From Paraconexibacter algicola (GTDB lineage Bacteria; Actinomycetota; Thermoleophilia; Solirubrobacterales; Solirubrobacteraceae), in NCBI RefSeq assembly GCF_003044185.1, contig NZ_PYYB01000003.1, positions 1-64,000 on the forward strand: a stretch of DNA of 64,000 nt, read 5' to 3'. A program made the translations under genes and the position numbers. Positions 1-18,655 of this stretch are shown here, one piece after another; position 1 is the stretch's first letter; each line of letters opens with the position of its first letter. A model generated the notes under the pieces. That model did not search any database and was not told the DNA's origin. It was given only the letters and a program-made list of their open reading frames with translations.

Positions 1-702
1 GCACGTCTGAACATCCTTCCCGCTGCGCCAAACGGCACAGCCATCAGATGTCCATCAAAGCGGGGGAACTCCAAAGGCCACCTCGACCACGGCTACGCCA
101 TGACCGCCCACCGAGCCCAGGGCGCGACCGTCGACCGCACCTACGTCCTCGGGTCGGACGAGCTCTACCGCGAATGGGGCTACACCGCCCTCAGCCGCCA
201 CCGAGACGCCACCCGCTTCTACCTGTCCGGGTCGCCGGCCTTCCTCAACGACGCCCCCGCCCCACTCTCCGCCGATCGCGACGCAGCCCGGGCCGTCACC
301 GACGCGCTGGAGAGCAGCCGCGCCGAACACCTCGCGCTGACGCAGGTACGGCGCGACTACCGCGAACACAAACACGACCGACTCCTCGCGCGACTCGAGG
401 ACGCCGCGCAGTGGCGCGACCAGCTGCAGGCCCAGCGCGACGCCACACCCTGGTACCGCCGCAGCGACGCCCAAGACCTCGACGAACGCCTCGCCATCGC
501 CCAACGCAACGTCGAGACCCAGATCGGCCTGCTCACCGACAACGAAGCCGACCTCGCCGAACGACCGCCACGCCAAGCCCCACCCCTCACCCCGGCCCGC
601 GACCCCCTACCCGACCTCGACGACCACCGAAGCCCCGGGCTCGGCCGCGAGCTGCCGACCCCCGACCTCAACGACGACCTCGGACCAGACCTCGGCTTCT
701 AA
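1..702 (+). CDS. TraA/MobF-like relaxase-helicase, C-terminal fragment
   Basis: Only the C-terminus is in the window. The stretch LDHGYAMTAHRAQGATVDR followed by a YTALSRHRD-type motif matches the last helicase motifs (UvrD_C_2 region) of conjugative relaxase-helicases such as TraA, which nick and unwind DNA for transfer. These lie at bases 85-230. The rest, to about base 700, is a charged, Arg/Asp-rich tail with helical character, usual for actinobacterial TraA proteins. The frame is open to the left edge, but the first 25 or so codons do not resemble the expected sequence before GHLDHGYA, so a junction, a frameshift or simple divergence upstream is possible. A small HTH gene follows after 32 bases. 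The family call is firm; completeness is unknown. Confidence 0.75.
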   Translation, partial: ARLNILPAAPNGTAIRCPSKRGNSKGHLDHGYAMTAHRAQGATVDRTYVLGSDELYREWGYTALSRHRDATRFYLSGSPAFLNDAPAPLSADRDAARAVTDALESSRAEHLALTQVRRDYREHKHDRLLARLEDAAQWRDQLQAQRDATPWYRRSDAQDLDERLAIAQRNVETQIGLLTDNEADLAERPPRQAPPLTPARDPLPDLDDHRSPGLGRELPTPDLNDDLGPDLGF

Positions 703-1091: not shown

Positions 1092-2012
1092 TTAGAACCC
1101 GGGAGGTGGTGAGCAGCCCTGTTTCGGACGCCGGTGTCCCGGGCGTATGCGTCCGAACCAGTCGCCGCTGCTGCACGTCAGGCCGTTGCGGTAGGTGACC
1201 TTGAGACCGACTTGTTGAGTGCCGGCATCGCTTGCGCGCAGCACGAATAGGAATTCTCCGTCGGGGCCGGGCTTCATTGAGCGGGTGATCCGACGGTTGC
1301 TGATCGTGACCTTGACTGCTTGGCGGCCTGCGAAGCCGTACTTGACGATGCGTCGTCCGCTTTGGTCGCAGAGCGGCTTGCCGCGTAGACGACGCCGTGT
1401 TTCCGGTGAGGATGTCGCGCGTTTGGGGCGGAATAGCAGGCAGCCGCCGATCGGCGTTTCGATCGAGCCGCTGTAGCCACTGGCCGGTGTCGGGGCGCCG
1501 CCGGCGGAGAACAAGAGCTGGCCGTCGGCGAACGTTCCGGAGCAGTGTCCTGTGCTCGACGCCAGTTCGGGCTGCGGGTGGAATTTGCCGTCGTTGTTGA
1601 ACAGCCCGTCGCGGCCGACCACGCCAAGCTTCCCGTCCTGCACCCGCGCGCGCCGAACGCATCGGATCGGGCCGGCCGCCGGCACTTGGCTCCCAGCGAT
1701 TGACCCACGCGTCGCGTCGAAGACCGCAATTCCCCAGGGCGGGCCGCCATCGGGGTCGGGTACCCGCAGTGAGAGGACGACGCTCGATCCAGGCTTCAAC
1801 TCGCCGACAGCGTCGTTCTTGGACTCTTGTGGAACGGGGTCACCGGTATCGAGCACGCCTGTCACGGCAGCGGTCGCGCCTCCGGCGACCAGGAGCGCTG
1901 CGAAACCGGCTAGGAGCGGCGCGGTCCTACGGCGAGCGCGGGGCGCAGGCGCGAGTTCGAGCCGTTCGGCTGCGCGCCGGAGCTGGTGTTCGAGGTCGGG
2001 AAGACGGCTCAT
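1092..2012 (-). CDS. one-TM protein partner of ECF sigma factor (pair 1), candidate anti-sigma
   Basis: About 306 residues starting MSRLPDLEHQLRRAAERLEL. The ATG at 2012 overlaps the sigma gene's TGA by 4 bases (ATGA), so translation is coupled. It has a short charged cytoplasmic segment (residues 1-32), one TM helix near residues 33-52 (TAPLLAGFAALLVAGGATAA) and a long outer domain with six scattered cysteines. There is no HxxxCxxC zinc anti-sigma motif. Gene order and topology suggest a membrane regulator of the sigma factor, which would bind it through the first 30 residues and sense something outside. This is inferred from context only. It shares layout, and loosely the C-terminal KVT strand, with the two following partners. 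Confidence 0.65.
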   Translation of the reverse strand: MSRLPDLEHQLRRAAERLELAPAPRARRRTAPLLAGFAALLVAGGATAAVTGVLDTGDPVPQESKNDAVGELKPGSSVVLSLRVPDPDGGPPWGIAVFDATRGSIAGSQVPAAGPIRCVRRARVQDGKLGVVGRDGLFNNDGKFHPQPELASSTGHCSGTFADGQLLFSAGGAPTPASGYSGSIETPIGGCLLFRPKRATSSPETRRRLRGKPLCDQSGRRIVKYGFAGRQAVKVTISNRRITRSMKPGPDGEFLFVLRASDAGTQQVGLKVTYRNGLTCSSGDWFGRIRPGHRRPKQGCSPPPGF

Positions 2013-2554
2013 CGGTCGGTCTCCAATCGCTGGCGGAGGGCGCGCAGGCCGCGGCTGACGCGTTGGCGCACGACGCTCTCTGAGCACCGCAGCTCTTCCG
2101 CCAGGTCGTCGTAGCTGAGTTCCTGCAGCACTCGGCCGGTGACGGCGCGACGTTGGTCCTCCGGCAACTCGCCAAGCGCCTCAATGGCGGCGGTCTCGCT
2201 CAACTCGTCAATACGCGCCAGCGCCCCGTCGTCCAGAACCAGCGGCTCCATCTGCAGCCGGCGCCGTGTCTCGTCATCGACGCGGCCGCGCTTGAGGCTC
2301 AAGGCGAGCAGGTTCCGGGCGATGCCGAAGAGCCAGCTACCGACGTCCCCGAGGGCTGGGTCAAACCGCTGCCGTCCCTCAAGCGCTCGAGCGAACGTCT
2401 CCGCGGTGAGATCCGCAGCCAACTCGGAACTCCCGGTGCGTCGCAGGAAGAAGGACAGGACCGCGTCTTCATGCCGACGGTAGAACCTGGCGAAGTCGCG
2501 AGCGTCGCCACGCAGCAGGACCGCGCTCGTGTCATTCCCAGATGCCGGGTCCAT
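2009..2554 (-). CDS. ECF-type sigma-70 factor (pair 1)
   Basis: A 181-residue sigma factor. Region 2 covers about residues 19-85 (FARFYRRHEDAVLSFFLRR, DLTAETFARAL, GSWLFGIARNLL) and region 4 about residues 120-178 (LPEDQRRAV, YDDLAEELRCSESVVRQRVSRGLRAL). It would direct RNA polymerase to a small regulon. The ATG at 2554 has a GAGGAG Shine-Dalgarno just upstream. It is closely similar to the sigma factor at 3398-3967, sharing DETRRRL.MEPL and VVRQRVSRGLR, so the two pairs look like a tandem duplication. The membrane partner follows by ATGA overlap. A motif shared with the second sigma gene lies 35 bases upstream of the start. Confidence 0.85.
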   Translation of the reverse strand: MDPASGNDTSAVLLRGDARDFARFYRRHEDAVLSFFLRRTGSSELAADLTAETFARALEGRQRFDPALGDVGSWLFGIARNLLALSLKRGRVDDETRRRLQMEPLVLDDGALARIDELSETAAIEALGELPEDQRRAVTGRVLQELSYDDLAEELRCSESVVRQRVSRGLRALRQRLETDR

Positions 2555-2672: not shown

Positions 2673-3401
2673 TCAACAGCCCACCGGCGGAAGTCGGTGT
2701 TTGGCCTTGCCGATCTGGACGGTGTCAATCGGCTCGTCGGTGGCGAGGACGAAGCTGTTGCGGCTCACGCTGGCGCGCGCCTGCTCGACTCCGGCGCGGC
2801 TCGCTGTGACCTTTTTGACTCCATCAGGCACGATCCCGGCGAGTCGACGGTGTTGCGGATGCGCGGCGCTCTTGTTGCACTGTTCGACGATGAAGCCACC
2901 ACGCTTGCCGATGGTGGCTGTCGGGTGGCAACTGGTGCTGAAGCCGCGACTCGTCGTCTTGCGCTGGTAGAGCCAGCAGGTCTCGCGATCGGTGGCGCGC
3001 AGGTAGATGGCACCTCTTGCGCCGCGGTAGCCGCGGACGTAGGTGTACTTCGGGCGACGGACGCGGTCGGCTCTTGTGGGGTTGCGCAGGACCGCAAAGA
3101 ATCTCTTGGCGTCGGTGATGGGCGCCTGCGCGTTGCGTTGCTGTTGGTACCGCCGACGGACAGCTGGAGACAGTTCGCGTGCCGGAACCGTAATCGTCTT
3201 CGAGCGCAGTGGCGGATCGTCAGGATCGTCTGGGGCCGCCACCCCAAGGACCCCGGCGACCGCTACCCCTGCGATCGCGATCGCGAAGACCGCGGCAAGG
3301 GGGCCTAGGCCCCAGCGCCACCACGTGGCCTTGCGTGGAGCTTGCGCTGCTGCGGCTCGCAGGAGCTCGGCGCGAAGTCGGTCTTGGGGGTCTCGCTTCA
3401 T
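2673..3401 (-). CDS. one-TM protein partner of ECF sigma factor (pair 2), candidate anti-sigma
   Basis: About 242 residues starting MKRDPQDRLRAELLRAA at 3401, an ATG overlapping the sigma stop codon by 4 bases. Residues 1-27 are a charged amphipathic helix. A TM helix follows at about residues 30-53 (LGPLAAVFAIAIAGVAVAGVLG). The outer domain has four cysteines and the motif GIVPDGVKKVT near residue 195, which also occurs in pair 3 as VVPDGVAKVT. The VPDGV strand is frequent in Solirubrobacterales proteins encoded beside ECF sigma genes (from memory). There is no zinc anti-sigma motif. Function as an anti-sigma or sensor is inference. Confidence 0.65.
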   Translation of the reverse strand: MKRDPQDRLRAELLRAAAAQAPRKATWWRWGLGPLAAVFAIAIAGVAVAGVLGVAAPDDPDDPPLRSKTITVPARELSPAVRRRYQQQRNAQAPITDAKRFFAVLRNPTRADRVRRPKYTYVRGYRGARGAIYLRATDRETCWLYQRKTTSRGFSTSCHPTATIGKRGGFIVEQCNKSAAHPQHRRLAGIVPDGVKKVTASRAGVEQARASVSRNSFVLATDEPIDTVQIGKAKHRLPPVGC

Positions 3402-3967
3402 CGGTGCTCCTTCAGGCCGGCGCGCAGGGTGCGTAGTCCGCGTGACACGCGCTGACGCACGACGCTGGGCGAGCAACGCAGTTCACGCGCGATGTCTTCG
3501 TAGGCGTGCTCGTCGATCACCCTGGCGACGACGGCCGCAGCCTGCTCGGGCGGAAGCCCCGCGAGGCCAGCCGCCAGCGTCGCCTGCTGGTTCAGGCAGA
3601 CGCGCTCTAGACGTTCAAGATCCCTGTCCCAAAGATCCAGGGGCTCCATGCCGAGCCGGCGTCGAGTTTCGTCACTGACTTCGCGAGTGCGATACGCGTC
3701 GACGAGGAGGTTCCTCGCGATCGTGAACGCCCACGACAGCGCGGAACCCTTGCGTTCGTCGAATCGACTCAAGGACGCGAGCATCCGCGCGAACGTCTCC
3801 GCCGTGAGGTCGAAAGCGAGCTCGCCATCTCGGACACGGCCCCGCACGAAGGCCAGGACCGAGCCGAAATGCCGGTCGTAGAACACACCGAACGCCTCGA
3901 CATCGCCGTCCGCCGCCCGGGCGAGCAGGTCCTCGTCGCGCTGAATAGCTAGTCGCCGCTTACCCAC
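3398..3967 (-). CDS. ECF-type sigma-70 factor (pair 2)
   Basis: A 189-residue protein from the GTG at 3967 (VGKRRLAIQRDEDLLARAAD); a longer frame opens at GTG 4021. I prefer 3967 because sigma factors usually begin just before such a segment and because the motif shared with gene 1 then sits at almost the same distance (34 versus 35 bases). Region 2 has FYDRHFGSVLAFVRGR, DLTAETFARML and LSWAFTIARNLL. Region 4 has LPPEQAAAVVARV and YEDIARELRCSPSVVRQRVSRGLRTL. It is a close paralogue of the sigma factor at 2009-2554. Its membrane partner overlaps by ATGA. It is divergent from the third sigma gene, with about 250 bases between. Confidence 0.8.
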   Translation of the reverse strand: MGKRRLAIQRDEDLLARAADGDVEAFGVFYDRHFGSVLAFVRGRVRDGELAFDLTAETFARMLASLSRFDERKGSALSWAFTIARNLLVDAYRTREVSDETRRRLGMEPLDLWDRDLERLERVCLNQQATLAAGLAGLPPEQAAAVVARVIDEHAYEDIARELRCSPSVVRQRVSRGLRTLRAGLKEHR

Positions 3968-3982
3968 AACGATTCGTACGGA

Positions 3983-4001
3983 CGCGGGCGTATTTTGTGA
4001 C
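3983..4001 (-). promoter_or_regulatory. shared upstream motif of ECF sigma gene 2
   Basis: On the minus strand this reads GTCACAAAatACGcCCGCG, matching 16 of 19 bases of the motif at 2571-2589 and sitting 34 bases before GTG 3967. Further upstream a GGAAC (4074-4070) and a CGTT (4051-4048), 18 bases apart, resemble an ECF-type promoter. The function of both is inferred. Confidence 0.4.
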
Positions 4002-4186
4002 GCGCCACCACGAGAACCCACCGGCTCGCTACCGCTTGGAGGCGATCAACGCCCGCTTCCGCGAATCCAGTTCCTGACGGTCCCCATATGCCGAGCTAGA
4101 TTCCGCGAGCCGCAGCCGCATTGTCTTGAGAGACCGCAATCGCTCCCTGACGCGTGGGCAGGGTCCGCGCTCGCGAGCCACGGGTT

Positions 4187-8759: not shown

Positions 8760-9044
8760 CTAAGCGACGTCGAGATACCGGCGCAGCGCCTCACGGATGA
8801 CCGCCGAGGTCGTCGCGTCGTCCTGCTCGGCGCGCTCCGCAAGGGCCCGACGCAGCTCCGGGTCCAGCCGCACGGACTCGACGGTCGCTGCGGCTGTCCC
8901 CATCGGCGGCCGACCGCGCCGCCGCTCGAGGGTCTCGTCGACGTCGTAGCCCTTCTCGGCGTCCGCGGCGAGCTTCCCGATCAGCTCGTCGGTGATCGGC
9001 GTTCCGGACTTCGTCTTGCCGTACTTGGGCTCAGCGATGGTCAG
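8760..9044 (-). CDS. ribbon-helix-helix (CopG-type) antitoxin with non-standard start
   Basis: Reading from a CTG at 9044 gives 94 residues: TIAEPKYGKTKSGTPITDEL, an RRRGRPPMG linker, then VESVRLDPELRRALAERAEQ and TTSAVIREALRRYLDVA, a classic ribbon-helix-helix DNA-binding domain. This arrangement is typical of actinobacterial antitoxins paired with BrnT/DUF4258-like toxins. There is no ATG, GTG or TTG in frame before the domain except the ATG of RPPMG, which would remove half the protein. The CTG overlaps the toxin stop as CTGA, where ATGA would be expected, so a single A-to-C change may have weakened the start. Confidence 0.6.
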   Translation of the reverse strand: MTIAEPKYGKTKSGTPITDELIGKLAADAEKGYDVDETLERRRGRPPMGTAAATVESVRLDPELRRALAERAEQDDATTSAVIREALRRYLDVA

Positions 9045-9282
9045 GCTCCCGGGAGGAGTCGGTGGTACTTCGCGCGCATCGGCATCGCGTGAAACGCCAG
9101 GTACGTCCCGTCGCCGCGATCGAGGGCGACGACCTCGAGCAGTCGGCCGTCGCGCGCCGGCCCGTGTAGAGGCGGGCGTCGTTGTCTTGCTCGTCGGTGG
9201 CGATCGCGTTGGCCATGGCGTGCTCGACGTCCGCGTCGGCGATCCCGTGCTTGCGGACCGCCTGATGGATGTCGACCGTCAA
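9041..9282 (-). pseudogene. BrnT/DUF4258-like toxin with a single-base frameshift
   Basis: From a TTG start the frame gives TVDIHQAVRKHGIADADVEH and ATDEQDNDARLYTG, then turns into basic nonsense. Adding one base to the GGCC run near 9167 restores GPARDGRLLEVVALDRGDGT and FHAMPMRAKYHRLLPGA, ending in TGA at 9041-9043 right at the antitoxin start. That continuation (LLEVV, AFHAM.MR.KY) is what toxins of this group look like. Either the toxin is broken in this genome or the base is a sequencing error in a GC run. Together with the odd antitoxin start it suggests a decaying TA pair on the mobile element. Confidence 0.6.
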
Positions 9283-9316: not shown

Positions 9317-10597
9317 TCATGCCGCCTCCACCTCGTCGTGCTCCGGGGCCATCGCCGCGGCGAACGCGTTGCCGAACCGTTTGGCGTCGTCGCGCCGCGG
9401 GCGCAGGTGCATGTAGCGCTCGGTCGTGACGAAGCTCGCGTGGCCGGCGGCGAGTTGGATCTCGAGCGGCGCGATCTTCGGGTCGCGCGCGAGCACGCTG
9501 GCGAACGTGTGCCGCAGGTCGTGGAAGGTCAGCAGCACCATCTTGTTGCCGCGCGGCTTGCGCCTCGTCACACCGGCGTAGTCGCGCGCCTTGCAGAACC
9601 GCGCGGACAGCGCGTCGATGTCGAGCTTGTCGTCGCGGCCCGTCCCCGGGAAGACCAACTCGTTGGACCACTTCGCGTCGTCGGGCGCCAGGCGCGCGAG
9701 GATCTGCGCGACCTGCGGCGCCATCGGGATCGTGCGCACACGCTTGCCCTTCGGCACCGCCCGCTCTCCCGCGCTGATGCTCTCGCTGACGTGGATCGTC
9801 ATCCCGTCGAAGTCGATGTTCTCCCACCGCAGGCTCACCAGCTCGGCGCGGCGCAGGCCGGCGAACGCAGCGAGGGTGATGATCTCCTCGTCGAAGCGGC
9901 TCGCAGCCGCCCGATGCTGGAACTGTTTGCAGTCGCAGAGCTCGAGGTGGATCGCTTTCGCGGCGCGCGCGATCGCCAGGACGTCCTCGACCTCGAAGAA
10001 CGGAGCCTTGCCCGTCGGCGGTTCCGGCGCCTTGCGAATGCCCTTCGACGGATCGGGGACCGGGGCGAACTCGTCCATGCCGTCGCCCCAGTTCACGACG
10101 ATGCGGAAGACCGTCAGCTGCGCGTTGGCGCTGCGCGGCGACAGCGACTCGCGGATGCGCACCCACCACGCGCGAATCTCGCGTCGCTCGATCCCGCGCA
10201 CTGGCTGCTCGCCGAACTCGGTCATCAGCGGACCGTCGGACCGCAGCACCGACTCGTAGTTGCGCAGGGTCGACGGCGCCCAGTCGCCCTCCGCGCGATG
10301 CCACTCCAGCCAGGCCTGCGCGACCTCGCCCCACGGCGCGCCGCCGAACGGGCTCACCGTGACGACGCGGCCCTCGTAGATCGCGCGCGCCTCGCGACGC
10401 GCTGCGACGAGCGTTTCCTCGAGCAGCCCGATCGCGTCGCGCTTGCGCAGGTGGCCGGCCGGAGGCTCGCCGCTCTCCCCCGTCCAGTCCATCCCGAGCT
10501 TGCGCTTGTGCTGCCCGTTCGCGTCCCGCCACTTCATGTACCAGGCCGTCCCGCGCTTGCCCTCGCGGCGGAACACGTGTCCGCTCACGGTGCTCAT
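9317..10597 (-). CDS. int: tyrosine recombinase, integrase of the mobile element
   Basis: 426 residues from the ATG at 10597 (MSTVSGHVFRREGKRGTAWY). The N-terminal arm-binding part (1-70) is followed by a SAM-like core-binding domain (about 90-185, WLEWHRAEGDWAPSTLRNYE) and a catalytic domain with AFAGLRRAEL (first Arg), FHDLRHTFAS (His and second Arg), LAAGHASFVTTERYMHL (His and the nucleophile Tyr). An insertion with LCDCKQFQHRA after the first block is unusual in length. The gene is transcribed away from the attachment site about 160 bases to its right, the standard arrangement for site-specific integration into a tRNA gene. It would integrate and excise the element at tRNA-Gly. Confidence 0.92.
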   Translation of the reverse strand: MSTVSGHVFRREGKRGTAWYMKWRDANGQHKRKLGMDWTGESGEPPAGHLRKRDAIGLLEETLVAARREARAIYEGRVVTVSPFGGAPWGEVAQAWLEWHRAEGDWAPSTLRNYESVLRSDGPLMTEFGEQPVRGIERREIRAWWVRIRESLSPRSANAQLTVFRIVVNWGDGMDEFAPVPDPSKGIRKAPEPPTGKAPFFEVEDVLAIARAAKAIHLELCDCKQFQHRAAASRFDEEIITLAAFAGLRRAELVSLRWENIDFDGMTIHVSESISAGERAVPKGKRVRTIPMAPQVAQILARLAPDDAKWSNELVFPGTGRDDKLDIDALSARFCKARDYAGVTRRKPRGNKMVLLTFHDLRHTFASVLARDPKIAPLEIQLAAGHASFVTTERYMHLRPRRDDAKRFGNAFAAAMAPEHDEVEAA

Positions 10598-10641
10598 ACG
10601 GGGTGCAATCGGCCTGCTCATCGCCCCTAAACTGAAGCACA

Positions 10642-10664
10642 AATTTGGTCCCCAATTTGGTCCC
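10642..10664 (+). repeat. two 11-base direct repeats, candidate integrase arm sites
   Basis: AATTTGGTCCC occurs at 10642-10652 and again at 10654-10664, a 12-base period, and GGTCCCC follows at 10671. The repeats are unusually A/T-rich for the region and lie between the integrase start and the attachment site, where arm-type binding sites usually sit. They could also be operator sites for the integrase promoter. Confidence 0.45.
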
Positions 10665-10760
10665 GAAACGGGTCCCCGAGGGGTCTGAGACAGCCTGATC
10701 GAACCCGAGGCAACCCCATCAATACTGGGCTTCCTGAACCCTCAAGTCATGGTTGAGGCT

Positions 10761-10802
10761 TTGCCATGCAGAAGGTCGAGAGTTCGAGTCTCTTCAGCCG
10801 CT
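10761..10802 (+). tRNA. 3' half of tRNA-Gly(GCC), attachment-site scar (not a functional tRNA)
   Basis: Reading as a tRNA: anticodon loop TTGCCAT at 10761-10767 with GCC at 10763-10765, the 3' strand of the anticodon stem GCAGA, variable loop AGGTC, T stem-loop GAGAG-TTCGAGT-CTCTT at 10778-10794, acceptor 3' strand CAGCCGC at 10795-10801 and discriminator T. The 5' side is missing: the five bases before the loop (AGGCT) cannot pair with GCAGA and there is no GCGGCTG acceptor strand upstream. The break falls exactly at the anticodon loop, a known crossover position for integrases. No CCA is encoded. The intact copy should lie at the other end of the element. Confidence 0.85.
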
Positions 10803-10807
10803 TGACG

Positions 10808-10831
10808 AAAGCCCCGCCCCGGCGGGGCTTT
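10808..10831 (+). terminator. intrinsic terminator left from the tRNA-Gly gene
   Basis: Perfect 10-bp stem AAAGCCCCGC (10808-10817) and GCGGGGCTTT (10822-10831) with a 4-base loop, 5 bases after the tRNA 3' end. It ends in a short T run. It marks the original tRNA transcription unit. From here to 11015 I see no gene; a palindrome AGGCGTC-C-GACGCCT lies at 10949-10963. Confidence 0.8.
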
Positions 10832-11015
10832 CTCGTTGCTCGGAACACGTGGTCCCCAAACTCGGGGCCGCGTTCTCGGACGCCGGCCGGCGAGCGTTCG
10901 GTCACGGACGCTCGCGTCGGCTCCGATGGTGCAGCTCCGCCGGCGCGAAGGCGTCCGACGCCTCGGCCCGAGGTCAATCAGCGGGCACCGCTCCGAGGCA
11001 CGTCGCCGCTCCCGG

Positions 11016-12131
11016 TCAGGCCGCCGCGTCCTCGTCCTGCGACGGCGCGTGCACGTAGGCCCGCAGGCCGCGATGGCGCGCGGCGAGATGCTCCAGGCGC
11101 AGGGTCATCGCCGGCGTCACGCGCACGCCGCGAGCGATCAGCAGCGTCCCGTCGGGCAGCCGCACGTCCTGCGCGATCGTGCTGCCGGCGGGGATCTCGG
11201 CGAGCCCGTGCTCGAGCAGCAAGGACTCCTGCCGGGCACCGACGGCCGCGGCGAGCGCGTCGAGCACCGGCTCGGCGATCGCGCCTTCCGCGCGCAGCAC
11301 CGCGACCGCGTCGGCGGGCGCCAGGCCGATGCACAGGAGGTCCAGGGCGACCGCGCCGCGCAGCAGGCTCGCCGCCGGTCCGAGCTCGCCGGAGGGCGGG
11401 TCGAGCGCCGCGACGACCGCGTCGAGCCGCGGGATGCGGCGCAGCATCCGGCCCGCGGCACGGACCGCGCCGACGACCGCGTCGCGGTCGGCGGGCTCGA
11501 GCGCCCGGCTGTCGGCCAGCCGGGCGGCGGTGTCGGCCGGCAGCGCGAAGGTCCCCAGCTGGCTGAGCGCGGCCGCGGTCTGCAGCGTCCACGTGTCGGT
11601 CAGGCCCAGGGACGGCGCGGCGTCGAGCACCAGGGTCGTCAGCCGTGCCGCGCGGCCCTGCGCCACCGGATCGGCGGCACCGAGCACCTCGGTGAGGACC
11701 TCGGTCGCGCCGCGGACCGTGTCCTGCAGCACCCGGTGCTCGGAGATCCGCTCACGGTGCCGGCGCACGCCCGCCTCGATCGCCGCCAGCAGGACGTCGC
11801 GGGCGACCGGCTTGGTGAGGTAGCGGAAGACCTGACCGTCGTTCACCGCGCTCGCGGCCGCCGCCGCGTCCGCCTGTCCGGTCAGCACGATCCGCGTGAC
11901 GTCCGGCGCGCGGTCGCGCGCCATCCCGAGAAAGCGCGCACCGTCCAGGACCGGCATGCGCATGTCGCTGACGATCACCTCGACCGGCTCCTCGTCGAGC
12001 ACCCGCAGGCCCTCGAAGCCCTGGCTGGCGGTGTGGATGCGGTAGCTGCGGCGCAGCATGTCGCCGAGCGCCTCGAGGACCTGCGGCTCGTCGTCGACGC
12101 AGAGGACGACCGGGCGATCGTGCTCGCTCAT
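11016..12131 (-). CDS. response regulator with degenerate HD-type output domain
   Basis: 371 residues from ATG 12131, which overlaps the previous stop by ATGA. The receiver domain (1-120) is complete: VVLCVDDEP, phospho-acceptor Asp56 in VIVSDMRMP, VLTG and YLTKPV. Residues 150-270 resemble the helical layout of HD/HD-GYP phosphodiesterases (GRAARLTTLVLDAAPSLGL), but LSQLG stands where LHDIG is expected, so the metal-binding His-Asp is gone. The C-terminal 80 residues (EIPAGSTIAQDVRLPDGTLL) match a short module usually found after HD-GYP-like regions. It is likely a signalling or scaffold protein rather than an enzyme. It is the last gene of the kinase operon. Confidence 0.75.
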   Translation of the reverse strand: MSEHDRPVVLCVDDEPQVLEALGDMLRRSYRIHTASQGFEGLRVLDEEPVEVIVSDMRMPVLDGARFLGMARDRAPDVTRIVLTGQADAAAAASAVNDGQVFRYLTKPVARDVLLAAIEAGVRRHRERISEHRVLQDTVRGATEVLTEVLGAADPVAQGRAARLTTLVLDAAPSLGLTDTWTLQTAAALSQLGTFALPADTAARLADSRALEPADRDAVVGAVRAAGRMLRRIPRLDAVVAALDPPSGELGPAASLLRGAVALDLLCIGLAPADAVAVLRAEGAIAEPVLDALAAAVGARQESLLLEHGLAEIPAGSTIAQDVRLPDGTLLIARGVRVTPAMTLRLEHLAARHRGLRAYVHAPSQDEDAAA

Positions 12132-13354
12132 GCCGCACGCTCCGGAGCCACGGCCCCACCCAGCTCGGCCCACAGCCGGGTCAGCGCGTCCGGCAGCTCG
12201 GGCACCCCGACCGGCGCGTCCGCACCCCACACCGCGGGATCACCGTGCCGGTAGATCGCGGTCGTCCCGGGATCCTCGAGCCGGTGCGCCAGGCGCTCCG
12301 CCAGCGCGACGGCCCGGACCAGCGGCGGGCCGCTCGCCGCGTCGGGCGCGTGATGGCACGCGACCGCCTCGACGACGGCGGCCGGCAGGCCCCACAGGGC
12401 GAGCAGCCGCCCGCCCGTCGCCGCGTGGCACGCACCGCGCTCCCGTGTCTCGACCTCGTGCAGGGCCAGGCCGGCGTCGGCTGCGGCCAGCAGGCGTGCA
12501 CGGTGCGCGTCGCGGTCGGCGCTCGCCAGCAGCAGCGCGCCGACGTCGTGCAGCAGCCCGCCGGCGAACGCCGCCGAGCCCAGCTCGCGGGCACCGACGA
12601 CGTCCCGCGCGATCCGGCCGGTGAACCGGGCGTGCGCCTCGAACGCCTCGAGCGCCGACGAGGGCAGCCGCGGCCCGGCGACCGTCAGGACCCCGTGCTC
12701 CAGCGCCACCGCCTCGACCGTGGACACCCCGAGGAACGCGATCGCCTCCTCGAGTCGCACGATCGTCCGCGGCACCCCGAAGTACGCGGAGTTCACCAGG
12801 CCCAGCAGCCGCGCGGTGAGGATCACGTCGCGGGACGCGATCCGGGCCAGCTCGGCCGCACCCGTGCGGTCGTGCGCCAGCGCGTCGCAGAGCTCCAGCA
12901 CGACCTGCGGGGCGCGCGGCAGCTCACCGATGCCCGTGACCGCGAGCCGCAGGCCCTCCTCACGCAGCCGCGCGCGCACCTCCAGGCTCTCCTGCACCGC
13001 ACGGGCGATCTCCGGCTCCGCGCAGGGCTTGCCGAGCACCCGGTGCGCCACGAGCCCCGCCCGCGTCGCGTTGCGCGGCTCCACCTGACCGCTGAGGATG
13101 ATCCGCACCACGTCGGGGTGGCGGCGCTCGACCTGCTCCAGCAGCGCGACGCCGTCCGTGCCCGGCATCCGCACGTCCGTGACGATCACGTCCACCGATC
13201 CGGCGTCGAGCGCCGTCAACGCGGCCGCCGCCCCGTCGTGGAAGCTCATGTCCCAGCGGTCGCGGCGGCGGCGCAGCAGATCGCGCAGCCCCTCGAGGAT
13301 CTCCGGCTCGTCGTCGACGAAGACGATCCGCACACGGTCGGTCGTGGCGCTCAT
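12128..13354 (-). CDS. response regulator with HDOD output domain
   Basis: 408 residues from ATG 13354, overlapping the kinase stop by ATGA. The receiver has VFVDDEPEIL, phospho-acceptor Asp60 in VIVTDVRMPGTDG, ILSG and VLGKPC. Residues 140-340 are an HDOD domain (IGELPRAPQVVLELCDALA, ILTARLLGLVNSAYFG, LEEAIAFLGVSTVEAVAL), then an HD-like segment with FAGGLLHDVGALLL and CHHAPD. HDOD proteins control motility, development or stress responses in other bacteria; the output here is unknown. Both receivers in this operon are probably phosphorylated by the kinase upstream. Confidence 0.85.
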   Translation of the reverse strand: MSATTDRVRIVFVDDEPEILEGLRDLLRRRRDRWDMSFHDGAAAALTALDAGSVDVIVTDVRMPGTDGVALLEQVERRHPDVVRIILSGQVEPRNATRAGLVAHRVLGKPCAEPEIARAVQESLEVRARLREEGLRLAVTGIGELPRAPQVVLELCDALAHDRTGAAELARIASRDVILTARLLGLVNSAYFGVPRTIVRLEEAIAFLGVSTVEAVALEHGVLTVAGPRLPSSALEAFEAHARFTGRIARDVVGARELGSAAFAGGLLHDVGALLLASADRDAHRARLLAAADAGLALHEVETRERGACHAATGGRLLALWGLPAAVVEAVACHHAPDAASGPPLVRAVALAERLAHRLEDPGTTAIYRHGDPAVWGADAPVGVPELPDALTRLWAELGGAVAPERAA

Positions 13355-14988
13355 CGCGGGCCCCCGACCGGCAGGCGGACCTCGACGCACGTGCCCTCCC
13401 CGGGCCGGCTGGACATCGTGATCGTCCCGCCGTGCATCTCGGTGACGATCCGGTGGGCGATCGCCAGGCCCTGCCCCGTCCCGACCCCGACCTCCTTCGT
13501 CGTGAAGAACGGATCGAACACGCGCGGCAGCGTCGCCGCGTCCACCCCCACCCCGTCGTCGACGACCTGCACCACCGCGGTTTCGCCCTCGCGGCGGGTG
13601 CGCACGGTCAGGGTGCCGTCCCCGGCGCGCCCGGTCGCGGCGATCGCCTGCGCGGCGTTCACCACGAGGTTGAGGAACACCTGCCCGAGGTCGCCGGGGC
13701 TGCAGCGGACCTCGCGGTCAAGCGCCAGGTCGGTGACGACCTCCGCCACGTGCCGGTACTCGCTGCGGGCCACGACCAGCGTGTCCGCCAGCATCCGGTC
13801 CAGATCCGCCGGGGCCAGCTCGCCGGACGGTCCGCCGGGCGAGAACCGCTTCATCGCCCGCACGATCGTCGCGACCCGGCCGACCCCGTCGGCGATCCGC
13901 TCGTGGGCCCGCGGCAGGCGCGTGCGCAGGTCGTCGAGGTCGACGCGCTCCTCCGCCGCCCGGACCGCCGCCTCGTCGACCGTGCACGCCAGCGCACGAT
14001 GGTGGTCCAGCACCCCGACGAGGTCCTCGTGCGCGTCCTGGAGGAACGCCGCGGTGTCCCCGATGAACTGGATCGGCGTGTTGATCTCGTGCGCGATTCC
14101 CGCCGCCAGCTGCCCGACCGCCTCGAGCTTGCGCGCCAGCTGCAGCTCGCCCTCGGCACGCGCGTGCTGCTGCTGGGCGAGGACCCGCTCGGTGACGTCG
14201 AGCAGCACGCCCTGCGACACCACGGTCGCGCCGCTGCCGTCCTCGACCGCCGCGAGCTCCTCGCGCACCCACACGTCGTGGCCGTCGGCGTGCACGAGCC
14301 GGTACTCGATCGCCCGGTGGTCCCCCGGCTCCAGCGGCCGGTCGGCGTGCGCGACGACCCGGTCGCGGTCCTCCGGATGCAGGCGCGAGCGCCACAGGTC
14401 GCTGGCCCCGAGCCAGCGCCAGTCCGGGAAGCCGGTCAGCTCCTCGATCTGCGGCGACGCGTACTCGACCAGGCCGCCGAGCCCGCCGCTCGTGCCCACC
14501 GTCAGGTACACGACGGCCGGGAGGTGCTCGACCAGCCGCTGGTAGCGGCGTTGGGACGCGCGCAGCGCGGCGCGGCTCTCGGCCAGCGCCTCGACCTCCA
14601 GGCGCCGCACGCGGCCCGCCTCCTCGGCGTCCCGCAGGGCGTGGCGCTCCGCGCGCGCCCACGACTCCAGGCGCTCCTCGCGCAGCGCCAGATCGGTCAC
14701 GTCGTGCAGCTCCACGACGGCGCCACAGCCCGACGGGTCCGGCCAGGCCTCGAGGCTCCAGACCGCGGTCCGACCACCGGTCGCGGTCCGGCGCTCGTCG
14801 GTGCACCGTGTGTGCTCGCACGCGCTGCGGCTCCCGAGCGCGAGCGCGCGCGCCGCCTCGTCGGGATGCGCGGACGCCCACGCCAGGTAGGCGGGCGTGG
14901 CGGCGAGCAGCTCGCCGTCGGCGGTCACGTGGACCAGCGGCACCGGGAGGGCGCGCCAGACCTGGTCGGGGATCACGAGCTCGGGCAC
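13351..14988 (-). CDS. PAS-domain sensor histidine kinase
   Basis: About 545 residues from GTG 14988, preceded at short spacing by GGAGG; an ATG at 15024 adds 12 residues and is possible. There are no TM helices, so it is cytoplasmic. A first PAS-like segment covers about 5-100 (VWRALPVPLVHVTADGELLA). A coiled coil of about 50 residues follows, then a PAS/PAC domain (LVEHLPAVVYLTV, EYASPQIEELTGF, LDVTERV). The kinase core has the H-box QLAAGIAHEINTPIQF, NLVVNAAQAI, DDGVGV, FDPFFTTK and GTGQGLAIAH. It heads a three-gene unit with two response regulators, all joined by 4-base overlaps. Confidence 0.88.
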   Translation of the reverse strand: MPELVIPDQVWRALPVPLVHVTADGELLAATPAYLAWASAHPDEAARALALGSRSACEHTRCTDERRTATGGRTAVWSLEAWPDPSGCGAVVELHDVTDLALREERLESWARAERHALRDAEEAGRVRRLEVEALAESRAALRASQRRYQRLVEHLPAVVYLTVGTSGGLGGLVEYASPQIEELTGFPDWRWLGASDLWRSRLHPEDRDRVVAHADRPLEPGDHRAIEYRLVHADGHDVWVREELAAVEDGSGATVVSQGVLLDVTERVLAQQQHARAEGELQLARKLEAVGQLAAGIAHEINTPIQFIGDTAAFLQDAHEDLVGVLDHHRALACTVDEAAVRAAEERVDLDDLRTRLPRAHERIADGVGRVATIVRAMKRFSPGGPSGELAPADLDRMLADTLVVARSEYRHVAEVVTDLALDREVRCSPGDLGQVFLNLVVNAAQAIAATGRAGDGTLTVRTRREGETAVVQVVDDGVGVDAATLPRVFDPFFTTKEVGVGTGQGLAIAHRIVTEMHGGTITMSSRPGEGTCVEVRLPVGGPR

Positions 14989-15763: not shown

Positions 15764-15979
15764 TCAGGCGTCGAGCGGCGGGAAGTCGCCCGGCACGCGC
15801 GGCCGGCGACGGTCACGGATCGTGCGGACCGAGCCCTCGGGGGCGACCGCGCCGCGCGCGCGGCGCTCGGACTTGCGCCGGTCGACGATGACCTTCACGT
15901 TCGGGTCGTCGGCGTAGTAGGCCGTCAGCTTGTCCAGGAGCTCGTCGGCGAGCGCCTCCGGCACGACGCAGTAGATCAT
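15764..15979 (-). CDS. small conserved-type hypothetical protein with DRRKSERR motif
   Basis: 71 residues from the ATG at 15979, with GGGAAGG as ribosome site. The first half is MIYCVVPEALADELLDKLTA with a VKVIVDRRKSERR strand and basic patch. The second half is basic and Pro-rich (RTIRDRRRPRVPGDFPPLD). Repeated Arg-Arg-Asp/Lys-Ser motifs suggest nucleic-acid or acidic-partner contact, but there is no named family I can attach. It lies 5 bases upstream of the HD hydrolase gene and 38 bases downstream of the zinc-ribbon gene, within an all-minus cluster. Confidence 0.6.
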   Translation of the reverse strand: MIYCVVPEALADELLDKLTAYYADDPNVKVIVDRRKSERRARGAVAPEGSVRTIRDRRRPRVPGDFPPLDA

Positions 15980-16017
15980 CGGCTTCCCTTCCCCACGGCG
16001 GTCATCGCTGCTGGAAC

Positions 16018-16821
16018 CTACGCGACGCCCGCGACGCGGTGCAACTCGCCCGCGTCGTCCGCCGCCGCGTTGGGCGTGCGCTCCTCGGGCGTCAGCTCGT
16101 CGAGCTCCGCCCCCTGGCCGATCACGCGCACCCCGGCGGCCTCGTCGCCGAGGTCGATCTCGTACCGGTACCAGCTGAGCTCCCACCCGACCACGACCGA
16201 CACGATGCTGCCCTCGGTCTGCGACGGGCGGGCGGACACGATCGGGGCGCCGAGCGACCGCGCCACGCCCGAGACGGTGCGCGGGTGCTGGCTGGCGTTG
16301 AAGACCTCGAGCGCCCGGGCGATCTTCAGCTCGGCGTTCGTCGGCACCGCGTGCACGCCGCGGGGCTCGTGGAACGCCTCCGCGTACGGGTCGGCGGCGG
16401 GCTGCGGCTCGGGCGCGGGCGGCTCGGGGTCGCGGACGATCGGCTCCGGGATGACCGTCCGGGTGTTCTCCAGCGGCTCCAGCGGCGGCAGCTCGTCCCA
16501 CTCGTCCTCGGGCGGCTCGGCGGCGTGGTCGCCGGAGCGACCGCCGCGGCGGGCCGCCGGGGCGGGGCCGCCGTCACGCCGGGTGCGCAGCCGCGTCAGC
16601 AGGCCACGGGCGGCGCCCTCGCGCGGGCTGCGGCCGAGCGCGTCGTCGATGCCCTCGCGGATCCAGCCCTCGTGGACGGCGCGACCGGTGCACAGCTCGC
16701 AGACGGTGCGGCGGGTCCCGCCGTGCAGGAACACGTCGGAGTTCTCGCCGCGCAGCAGCGTGCGGCCGCACACGTCGCACGCTACGGAGGCCTGGGATGT
16801 CGAGATGGTCTTGCGGGTCAC
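16018..16821 (-). CDS. zinc-ribbon protein of unknown function
   Basis: About 267 residues from GTG 16821 (VTRKTISTSQASVACDVCGR); a longer frame from GTG 16875 exists but adds only basic residues. Two CxxC pairs near residues 15 and 45 (CDVCGRTLLRGE, TVCELCTGRA) form a treble-clef or zinc-ribbon fold. The middle (80-155) is acidic and Pro-rich and probably disordered. The last 100 residues form a compact domain (AELKIARALEVFNASQHPRT, ARSLGAPIVSA, GWELSWYRYEIDL). Such proteins recur beside sigma and xerC genes in Thermoleophilia, from memory. Function unknown. Confidence 0.6.
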   Translation of the reverse strand: MTRKTISTSQASVACDVCGRTLLRGENSDVFLHGGTRRTVCELCTGRAVHEGWIREGIDDALGRSPREGAARGLLTRLRTRRDGGPAPAARRGGRSGDHAAEPPEDEWDELPPLEPLENTRTVIPEPIVRDPEPPAPEPQPAADPYAEAFHEPRGVHAVPTNAELKIARALEVFNASQHPRTVSGVARSLGAPIVSARPSQTEGSIVSVVVGWELSWYRYEIDLGDEAAGVRVIGQGAELDELTPEERTPNAAADDAGELHRVAGVA

Positions 16822-16917
16822 GCGGCGATCGAGGGTAGCAGCGGTCCCGAGCGGGCCCCGCACGACGCGGACCACCCGCCAGCTGCTACGCCGCCCCCGG
16901 TGAAGCGGCGCTGCGGG

Positions 16918-17700
16918 TCAGTCGACCTGATCGCTGGTGAGGCGCGAGCGCAGGCGCAGCACGGCCTTCGTGTGCAGCTGCGAGATCCGCGACTCGGTGA
17001 CCCCGAGGACCTCGCCGATCTCGCGGAGCGTGAGGTTCTCGTAGTAGTAGAGCGCGACGACGAGCTTCTCCCGCTCGGGCAGGCGCGCGATGGCGTCGGC
17101 GACCCGGTCCTTCAGGTCGGTCTGGTCCATCACGGCGGCGGGATCGGGAGCGTCCGGGTCCTGCAGGGTGTCCAGGAGCGACACCTGGTCGCCGCTGGAG
17201 TCCGACACCGTCCAGAGCTCGTCGAGCGCGGCGATCGTCGAGTTGGAGATCTGCAGCAGCGCCGCCTGGAACTCGTCGACGGTCATCTCGAGCTCCTGCG
17301 CCATCTCCTCGTCGGTGGGCGCGCGCTGCAGCTTGTGCTCGAGCTTCGAGTTGGCCCGCTCGATCGCGCGGGCGCGGGCCCGCACGGACCGCGGCACCCA
17401 GTCCAGGGAGCGGAGCTCGTCGATGATCGCGCCCTTGATGCGCGTGATCGCGTACGTCTCGAACTTGATCTCGCGCGAGAGGTCGAATCGCTCGATCGCG
17501 CTGATCAACCCGACCAGACCGTAGGAGATGAGGTCGGCCTCCTCCACGTGCGCCGGCAGGCCCGACGCCATGCGACCGGAGACGTACTTCACCAGCGGCG
17601 AGTAGGCGACCACGAGACGCTCCCGGGCGCGCTCGTCCCCGGCGGTCTTGTAGCGCCGCCAGAGGTCCTTCAGTTCGATCGCTTTGACGTTCGTCTCCAC
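16918..17700 (-). CDS. FliA/WhiG-family sigma factor
   Basis: 260 residues from GTG 17700 with GGAG upstream. All four group-3 sigma regions are present: region 2 (LVVAYSPLVKYVSGRMASGL, EEADLISYGLVGLISAIERF, FETYAITRIKGAIIDELRSL), region 3 (APTDEEMAQELEMTVDEFQA) and region 4 (LPEREKLVVALYYYENLTLR, EIGEVLGVTESRISQLHTKA). This class controls flagellar genes (FliA/SigD) or sporulation/differentiation (WhiG). No flagellar genes are visible here, so which programme it drives is open. It lies 19 bases after xerC, an arrangement also seen near codV and sigD-type genes in other Gram-positives. Confidence 0.9.
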   Translation of the reverse strand: METNVKAIELKDLWRRYKTAGDERARERLVVAYSPLVKYVSGRMASGLPAHVEEADLISYGLVGLISAIERFDLSREIKFETYAITRIKGAIIDELRSLDWVPRSVRARARAIERANSKLEHKLQRAPTDEEMAQELEMTVDEFQAALLQISNSTIAALDELWTVSDSSGDQVSLLDTLQDPDAPDPAAVMDQTDLKDRVADAIARLPEREKLVVALYYYENLTLREIGEVLGVTESRISQLHTKAVLRLRSRLTSDQVD

Positions 17701-17719
17701 CCTGGGTCTCCGTCTCGTG

Positions 17720-18655
17720 TCAGGCTCGCGGGTGTGCCCGCGCGTACGCCGTCCTGAGACGCGCTGACTCTACCCGAGTGTAGATCTGGGTCGTGGAGAC
17801 GCTCGCGTGTCCGAGCATCTCCTGGATCGCGCGCAGGTCGGCCCCGCCGTCCAGCAGGTGCGTCGCGAACGAGTGACGGAGGGCGTGCGGATGCACCCCG
17901 CCCTGGACCTCGGCGAGCCGCACCCAGACGCGCAGCCGCCGGCGGACGTCCGACGTGCCGAGACGCCGGCCGGACTTCGAGAGGAACAGCGCCGGTTCCG
18001 CATCCGGCTCCGCGCCGGCGAGCGCGGGGCGGGCACGTTCCCGGTAGCGGGCGACCGCGGCGAGCGCGGCCTCCCCGGCAGGCACGAGGCGGGTCTTGCC
18101 GCCCTTGCCCTCGACGCGGACCTGCTCGGCGTCGAAGTCGATGCTCGGCAGGTCGAGGGTGACGATCTCCTCCGCGCGCAGGCCGCACGCGTACGCCAGC
18201 TCGAACATCGCCCGGTCGCGGAGCTCCAGCGGGGTCGACGTCGGGATGCGGTCCAGGAGGGCGGCGATCTCGGCGGGCTTCAGCACGGTCGGCAGCGTCC
18301 GCGGTCGCTTCGGGGAGGCGACGAGGTCCGCCGGGTTCTGCTCCACGAGGCCGTGCTCGCGCAGGGACCGGAACAGGGAGCGGATGGCCGCCAGCTTGCG
18401 GGCGACCGTCGTCGGTGCCGCCCCGTCCTCCCCGAGCTTCGCGGCGTAGCGGCGCAGCGCGCGGTGCTCGACCTCGCGCGGCTCGAGCCCGGCGGCGGAC
18501 GCCCAGCGCGCGAACTGCTCGACGTCGATGCCGTAGGCGCGCCGGGTCTTCTCGGCCGCGGCCCGGCCGCGCAGCTCGCGGTCGAGCAGCAGCAGCGCCT
18601 GCTGCCAGGCGGGCGGCAGCTCCGCCGGGGAGCCGGTCGTATCCTCAGAGGACAT
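17720..18655 (-). CDS. xerC: tyrosine recombinase XerC/XerD family
   Basis: 311 residues. The N-terminal SAM-like domain (about 18-110) has AYGIDVEQFARWAS and TTVARKLAAIRSLF. The catalytic domain has AYACGLRAEEIVTLDL (Arg), VEGKGGKTRLVP (Lys), HPHALRHSFATHLLDGG (His, Arg), LGHASVSTTQIYT (His, Tyr). It would resolve chromosome dimers at dif with a second Xer protein. Its length and lack of an arm-binding domain distinguish it from the element's integrase at 9.3 kb. The ATG at 18655 overlaps the ATG of the opposite-strand gene by two bases; no ribosome site is visible, so translation may be leaderless. Confidence 0.9.
   Translation of the reverse strand: MSSEDTTGSPAELPPAWQQALLLLDRELRGRAAAEKTRRAYGIDVEQFARWASAAGLEPREVEHRALRRYAAKLGEDGAAPTTVARKLAAIRSLFRSLREHGLVEQNPADLVASPKRPRTLPTVLKPAEIAALLDRIPTSTPLELRDRAMFELAYACGLRAEEIVTLDLPSIDFDAEQVRVEGKGGKTRLVPAGEAALAAVARYRERARPALAGAEPDAEPALFLSKSGRRLGTSDVRRRLRVWVRLAEVQGGVHPHALRHSFATHLLDGGADLRAIQEMLGHASVSTTQIYTRVESARLRTAYARAHPRA
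18640..18645 (+). promoter_or_regulatory. candidate -10 element of a leaderless promoter
   Basis: TATCCT lies 8 bases before the ATG at 18654, so transcription would start at or next to the start codon. The site is inside the xerC coding region on the other strand. It fits a leaderless message, as the gene has no good ribosome site. Confidence 0.4.

What the first reader, a model, noticed from the sequence alone, without database searches (positions are those of the whole stretch)
10761..10802. tRNA-Gly(GCC) cut exactly at the anticodon loop marks an element junction
The 42 bases reproduce a tRNA-Gly 3' half from the anticodon loop to the discriminator, followed by an intact terminator, while the 5' half is absent and the preceding bases cannot pair. 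A tyrosine integrase starts about 160 bases away. This gives the right attachment site to the base and defines everything to the left as acquired DNA.
Basis: partly seen in the sequence, partly recalled or inferred. Interest (0 to 1): 0.75.

Follow-up and report, generated by a model that had tools for sequence, protein, structure and literature searches.

The report
Mobile element inserted in glycine tRNA
The 42 bases are the leftover 3' half of a glycine tRNA gene that a mobile DNA element split when it inserted (its intact twin sits at the element's other end, on a neighbouring contig); this is an ordinary kind of insertion, at what turns out to be a repeatedly used site in this bacterial order.

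Summary
Confirmed. Window 10761-10802 is exactly the 3' half of tRNA-Gly(GCC), starting at the first base of the anticodon loop. The only other copy in the 4.74-Mb genome is the intact gene at C6:4817-4890(-). The exact repeat is longer than claimed: 67 bp, through the terminator (10761-10827). The window starts at contig C3's first base. C6 and C3 are parted by an IS copy inside one MobF relaxase gene; its two halves join in frame with a 3-bp target duplication. The element therefore runs from the tRNA on C6 to 10760, about 15.5 kb plus the IS. It carries a tyrosine integrase 163 bp from the remnant, a broken relaxase, an ApeA-like gene and ECF sigma factors. GC is 0.67-0.70 in the element against 0.75-0.77 just right of it. 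In relatives the tRNA gene lies next to genes found right of the remnant. Nine other genomes of the order hold a half gene cut in the same stem-loop; in all five checked, an integrase lies beside it likewise. This is a classic anticodon-loop attR at a tRNA hotspot: real, precise, ordinary. One correction: the right flank is not cleanly native; an arm-like sequence at 10842-10889 points to an older insertion.

The parts
10761..10802 (+). Displaced 3' half of tRNA-Gly(GCC), from the first base of the anticodon loop to the discriminator: the attR core
   Evidence: Identical to the intact gene at C6:4817-4890(-)
10803..10827 (+). Spacer and terminator stem, also part of the exact 67-bp repeat shared by both element ends
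10761..10767 (+). Anticodon loop TTGCCAT, the inferred 7-bp strand-exchange (overlap) region
   Evidence: Identity between the two copies begins exactly here in this genome and in four others; the 7-bp rule is from PMC8371274
10645..10677 (+). GGTCCC-type repeats between integrase start and remnant, likely integrase arm-binding sites (P arm)
   Evidence: Motif TTGGTCCCSAAWYT at up to 1 mismatch occurs in the whole genome only at the att flanks; positions
10842..10889 (+). P'-arm-like sequence OUTSIDE the remnant, similar to the element end beside the intact tRNA; likely trace of an older element
   Evidence: Local alignment score 44 against a null maximum of 31; motif copy at 10849
9317..10597 (-). 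Tyrosine integrase, 426 aa, reading away from the remnant into the element
   Evidence: Pfam Phage_integrase E 4.5e-20; HDLRH, GHAS and TERY motifs readable
1..72 (.). Right end of an IS copy at the contig end; breaks the relaxase gene and the assembly
   Evidence: Inverted-repeat ends at six contig ends; AAG target duplication shared with the C6 start
73..702 (+). C-terminal part of the element's MobF relaxase-helicase (N-terminal 730 aa on C6:3-2192, minus strand)
   Evidence: N part: TrwC E 7.2e-85, MobF over cut-off; in-frame join across the IS site
2009..2554 (-). ECF sigma factor
   Evidence: Sigma70_r2 and r4, sigma70-ECF
3398..4021 (-). ECF sigma factor
   Evidence: Sigma70_r2 and r4, sigma70-ECF
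8760..9038 (-). Ribbon-helix-helix (CopG) protein, probable antitoxin
   Evidence: RHH_1 E 1.2e-5
15764..18655 (-). Right-flank native block: small protein, w16018 protein, sigma factor, XerC/D-like recombinase; found next to intact tRNA-Gly in relatives

Best explanation
The 42 bases are the displaced half of the target gene at attR of an integrated mobile element. A tyrosine integrase recombined the element's attP with the chromosomal tRNA-Gly(GCC) gene, exchanging strands across the 7-bp anticodon loop. The element's own copy of the 3' half and terminator restored the tRNA at one end (C6), and the original 3' half was pushed to the other end (window 10761), beside the integrase. The element is about 15.5 kb plus an IS. 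It looks like an integrative mobilizable element (integrase plus MobF relaxase, no transfer channel found) whose relaxase is now broken by the IS. Shown: the repeat, the intact tRNA, the synteny, the composition step, the integrase. Inferred: that the overlap equals the anticodon loop, that GGTCCC repeats are arm sites, and that the element once moved by conjugation.
For: Only two genomic copies, one intact and one half, sharing 67 exact bp that begin at the loop edge. The relaxase halves on C6 and C3 join in frame with an AAG duplication. GC is 0.67-0.70 up to 11 kb and 0.75-0.77 just right of it; host codon scores are low for most of the element's ORFs, though not for the integrase. Empty arrangement in other genera and families: intact tRNA-Gly beside the right-flank block. 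Five other remnants have an integrase at the same side and orientation, including two with both ends on one contig, 10.5 and 14.1 kb apart.
Against: C6 and C3 are not physically joined in the assembly; adjacency rests on the IS ends, the target duplication and the reading frame. The same-genus genome P. antarcticus has its two element ends 793 kb apart in inverse orientation. No genome with a directly empty site and the same immediate right-hand genes (11-15.7 kb) was found.
Confidence: 0.95

Rival explanations
1. Tandem accretion (a refinement rather than a replacement of the best explanation): the remnant is both attR of the present element and the old attL core of an earlier related element, whose left (P') arm survives at 10842-10889 and whose cargo may be the unique genes at 11.0-15.7 kb.
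For: P'-arm-like sequence outside the remnant, score 44 against null maximum 31. The arm motif occurs genome-wide only at the att flanks. The HDOD regulator at 12128-13354 has no match at E 1e-40 in 20 relatives, while the next conserved gene is at 15764. Repeated tRNA 3'-half copies on one strand exist elsewhere (G095).
Against: No third tRNA remnant right of 10827. Genes at 11-15.7 kb have host-like GC and codon use. The arm copy could instead be chromosomal DNA once picked up by the element.
Confidence: 0.45
2. A decayed duplicate of the tRNA gene that merely lost its 5' half, unrelated to the integrase.
For: tRNA gene fragments can in principle arise by deletion or duplication without an element (general knowledge).
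Against: Exact 67-bp identity, cut exactly at the loop, the integrase alongside, GC and codon step, synteny, and recurrence with the same geometry in other genomes.
Confidence: 0.02
3. A split or intron-bearing tRNA gene whose 5' half lies elsewhere.
For: Cut at the anticodon loop, where introns sit.
Against: A complete intact tRNA-Gly(GCC) with the same 3' half exists and is in conserved context.
Confidence: 0.01

Closest known systems
tRNA-integrated genomic islands with anticodon-centred attachment site (Islander, class A; PMC4383910)
   Same: Regenerated tRNA gene at one end, displaced 3' fragment at the other, integrase inside, same orientation; 2083 of 3919 Islander islands are anticodon-centred and 3760 leave a 3' fragment
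   Different: Here the two ends fall on two contigs split by an IS; nothing else differs in kind
Integrative mobilizable / conjugative elements with MobF (TrwC/TraA) relaxase
   Same: Tyrosine integrase and a MobF relaxase-helicase; 50% identical relaxase downstream of tRNA-Gly in P. antarcticus
   Different: No type IV secretion or FtsK-like gene found in the 19 element ORF translations scanned; relaxase broken by an IS

Membership tests
tRNA-integrated genomic island (Islander criteria) | Intact tRNA gene and a fragment of it in the same orientation | tested here: met
   C6:4817-4890(-) and window 10761-10802(+); C6(-) followed by C3(+) gives the same orientation
tRNA-integrated genomic island (Islander criteria) | Both on the same replicon | tested here: inconclusive
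   Different contigs; joined by IS ends, AAG duplication and in-frame relaxase
tRNA-integrated genomic island (Islander criteria) | Non-Xer tyrosine integrase between the ends | tested here: met
   PF00589 E 4.5e-20; below the XerC and XerD equivalog cut-offs
tRNA-integrated genomic island (Islander criteria) | Length 2-200 kb | tested here: met
   About 4.8 kb on C6 plus 10.7 kb in the window plus one IS
tRNA-integrated genomic island (Islander criteria) | Crossover in the anticodon loop (class A) | tested here: met
   Identity begins at the first loop base; strand exchange itself not assayed
Integrative mobilizable element | Relaxase gene | tested here: met
   TrwC E 7.2e-85, MobF over cut-off, but interrupted by an IS
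Integrative mobilizable element | oriT and mobilization by a helper | not testable with these tools
   Needs mating experiments; oriT not searched
Integrative conjugative element | Type IV secretion system or FtsK-type transfer gene | tested here: not met
   No such Pfam match in 19 element ORF translations

The most novel reading that the evidence does not exclude
In this order the anticodon-loop integrases at tRNA-Gly not only insert elements but also flip DNA: P. antarcticus has its element ends 793 kb apart in inverse orientation, and in 9 of 39 scored cases the tRNA-Gly gene is inverted relative to the conserved sigma-factor block beside it.
Probability: 0.1. Interest if true: 0.5.

Novelty: new member of a known kind. 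Interest (0 to 1): 0.25.

Why it matters
It fixes one end of a mobile element to the base, identifies its partner end on another contig, and so orders two contigs. It also shows tRNA-Gly(GCC) to be a recurring insertion hotspot in this little-studied actinobacterial order, with a consistent geometry (integrase beside the displaced half, reading inwards) that can be used to find further elements automatically.

Tried and rejected
Chance match: rejected. RNA families over 10400-11100: no tRNA hit; the weak hits are mostly terminator hairpins. Third remnant right of 10827: none above shuffled queries. Relatives of the integrase in named genomes by peptide patterns: none confirmed. Phage and plasmid collections: only 21-28% identity in the matches listed. 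Other integrases 33-41% identical to this one sit near other tRNA genes (Thr, Arg, Met, SeC, Asp), so the tRNA-Gly target does not follow overall integrase similarity; no tree was built.

Full report
Observation. Window 10761-10802 equals the 3' half of an intact tRNA-Gly(GCC). A 25-base core of it occurs twice in the 4.74-Mb genome at up to 3 mismatches: here and at C6:4827-4851(-). ARAGORN calls the C6 copy a complete tRNA-Gly with anticodon GCC and finds no tRNA in the window. Aligned directly, the two copies share 67 identical bases, 10761-10827, from the first base of the anticodon loop through the terminator stem, with no identity to the left. The chance expectation is zero.

Where the other end is. 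The window begins at base 1 of contig C3, so the partner could not be in the window. Reading C6 on its minus strand gives tRNA-Gly, then an ApeA-like gene, an unknown gene on the opposite strand, and a MobF relaxase-helicase that runs off the contig start. The window's first reading frame is the tail of such a relaxase. Both contig ends carry terminal inverted repeats of one IS, which also sits at the ends of C1, C4, C5 and the far end of C6. Taking the IS boundary as TGGAGTTCC..., C6 and C3 share the target duplication AAG, and the two relaxase parts join in frame as ...HYAHEGHLDHGYAMTAHRAQG.... C6(-) and C3(+) are therefore one stretch interrupted by an IS. The element spans about 4.8 kb on C6 and 10.7 kb in the window, plus the IS, whose length is not known.

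Independent support. GC is 0.67-0.70 across 1-11 kb and 0.75-0.77 over the next 6 kb. A codon model trained on the right part of the window scores most ORFs in 1-9 kb low; the integrase itself scores 137 and is host-like in this test. In related genomes the genes right of the remnant (15764 small protein, 16018 protein, 16918 sigma factor, 17720 XerC/D-like, 19011) lie downstream of an intact tRNA-Gly: in G012 of the same family, and in G016, G027 and G018 of other families. The C6 flank (tRNA-Val, tRNA-Cys, the 7010-8098 gene) is shared with the tRNA-Gly neighbourhood of G007. Tabulating the tRNA 3' half and the sigma gene where both lie on one contig gives 28 of 39 cases convergent, with spacing from 1.4 to 101 kb; 9 have the tRNA flipped on the same side of the sigma gene; 2 are unrelated (coordinates typed; one genome contributes two copies, and at least two rows, those of this window and of G007, are remnants). 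The variable spacing marks an insertion hotspot.

Same event elsewhere. Nine other genomes carry a 3'-half copy without the 5' half: G007, G032, G060, G062, G095, G100, G123, G125, G145. In G007, G062, G125 and G145, as here, identity with the tRNA starts exactly at the first anticodon-loop base; the others retain 1 to 7 bases of the stem's 5' side. In five (G007, G100, G123, G125, G145) a relative of the window integrase lies immediately left of the remnant on the minus strand, as in the window; the remaining four were not examined with enough flanking DNA or gave no match. G100 and G123 hold both ends on one contig, 10.5 and 14.1 kb apart, with exact 48-bp repeats.

Mechanism. Tyrosine integrases commonly use the anticodon stem-loop: its 7-base loop matches the 7-bp overlap and its stem the inverted core sites (PMC8371274). 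Here attB is TCTGC-TTGCCAT-GCAGA. GGTCCC repeats flank the core on the integrase side (10645-10677) and on the tRNA side (C6 4758-4723); the motif TTGGTCCCSAAWYT at up to 1 mismatch occurs nowhere else in the genome except 10849. I read them as arm-type sites; this is inferred. That 67 bp including the terminator are identical suggests a recent insertion from a close donor, because terminators differ between congeners; also inferred.

A correction to 'right = native'. One arm-like motif, at 10849, lies outside the remnant. Around it about 48 bp align to the element's tRNA-side end beyond the repeat, score 44 against a null maximum of 31. The HDOD regulator at 12128-13354 has no match in 20 relatives at E 1e-40, and the first gene conserved in place is at 15764. 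An older insertion at the same site, now without its far end, is plausible; GC and codon use there are host-like, and no third remnant was found.

Known or new. Islander lists 3919 such islands, 2083 anticodon-centred, 3760 with a 3' fragment (PMC4383910). This is a new member of that kind. As a mobile element it is most like an integrative mobilizable element: integrase and MobF relaxase, and no transfer-channel gene in 19 ORF translations scanned.

Noticed in passing
window 1-72; C1 start, C4 end, C5 start, C6 both ends: One IS (ends GGAGTTCCCCCG...TGGACA) sits at six contig ends, so many assembly breaks of this genome are copies of it; one copy inactivates the element's relaxase.
   Followed up: partly
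G007 C1:2631497(-) and C1:3424421(+): In P. antarcticus the tRNA end and the integrase end of a related element are 793 kb apart in inverse orientation, suggesting a large inversion or a misassembly.
   Followed up: partly
tRNA-Gly versus sigma block in 39 scored cases: In 9 cases the tRNA-Gly points away from the conserved sigma gene instead of towards it, while staying on the same side.
   Followed up: partly
window 8760-9282 (-): RHH antitoxin-like gene next to a partner ORF that appears frameshifted near 9160 (two frames together cover it).
   Followed up: partly
C6:3371-4591(-): ApeA N-terminal-domain protein (E 2.5e-10; PADLOC PDC-S58 and Cas13-ApeA weak matches), a possible anti-phage defence gene just inside the element's tRNA end.
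   Followed up: partly
window 11016-14988 (-): Two response regulators (HD, HDOD) and a histidine kinase between remnant and native block; the HDOD regulator is unique to this genome among 21 compared.
   Followed up: partly
C1:2112175-2113275(+): Another integrase (37% identical, one in-frame TAG) lies 148 bp after a tRNA-Thr(CGT) in the same genome, likely a second element.
   Followed up: no
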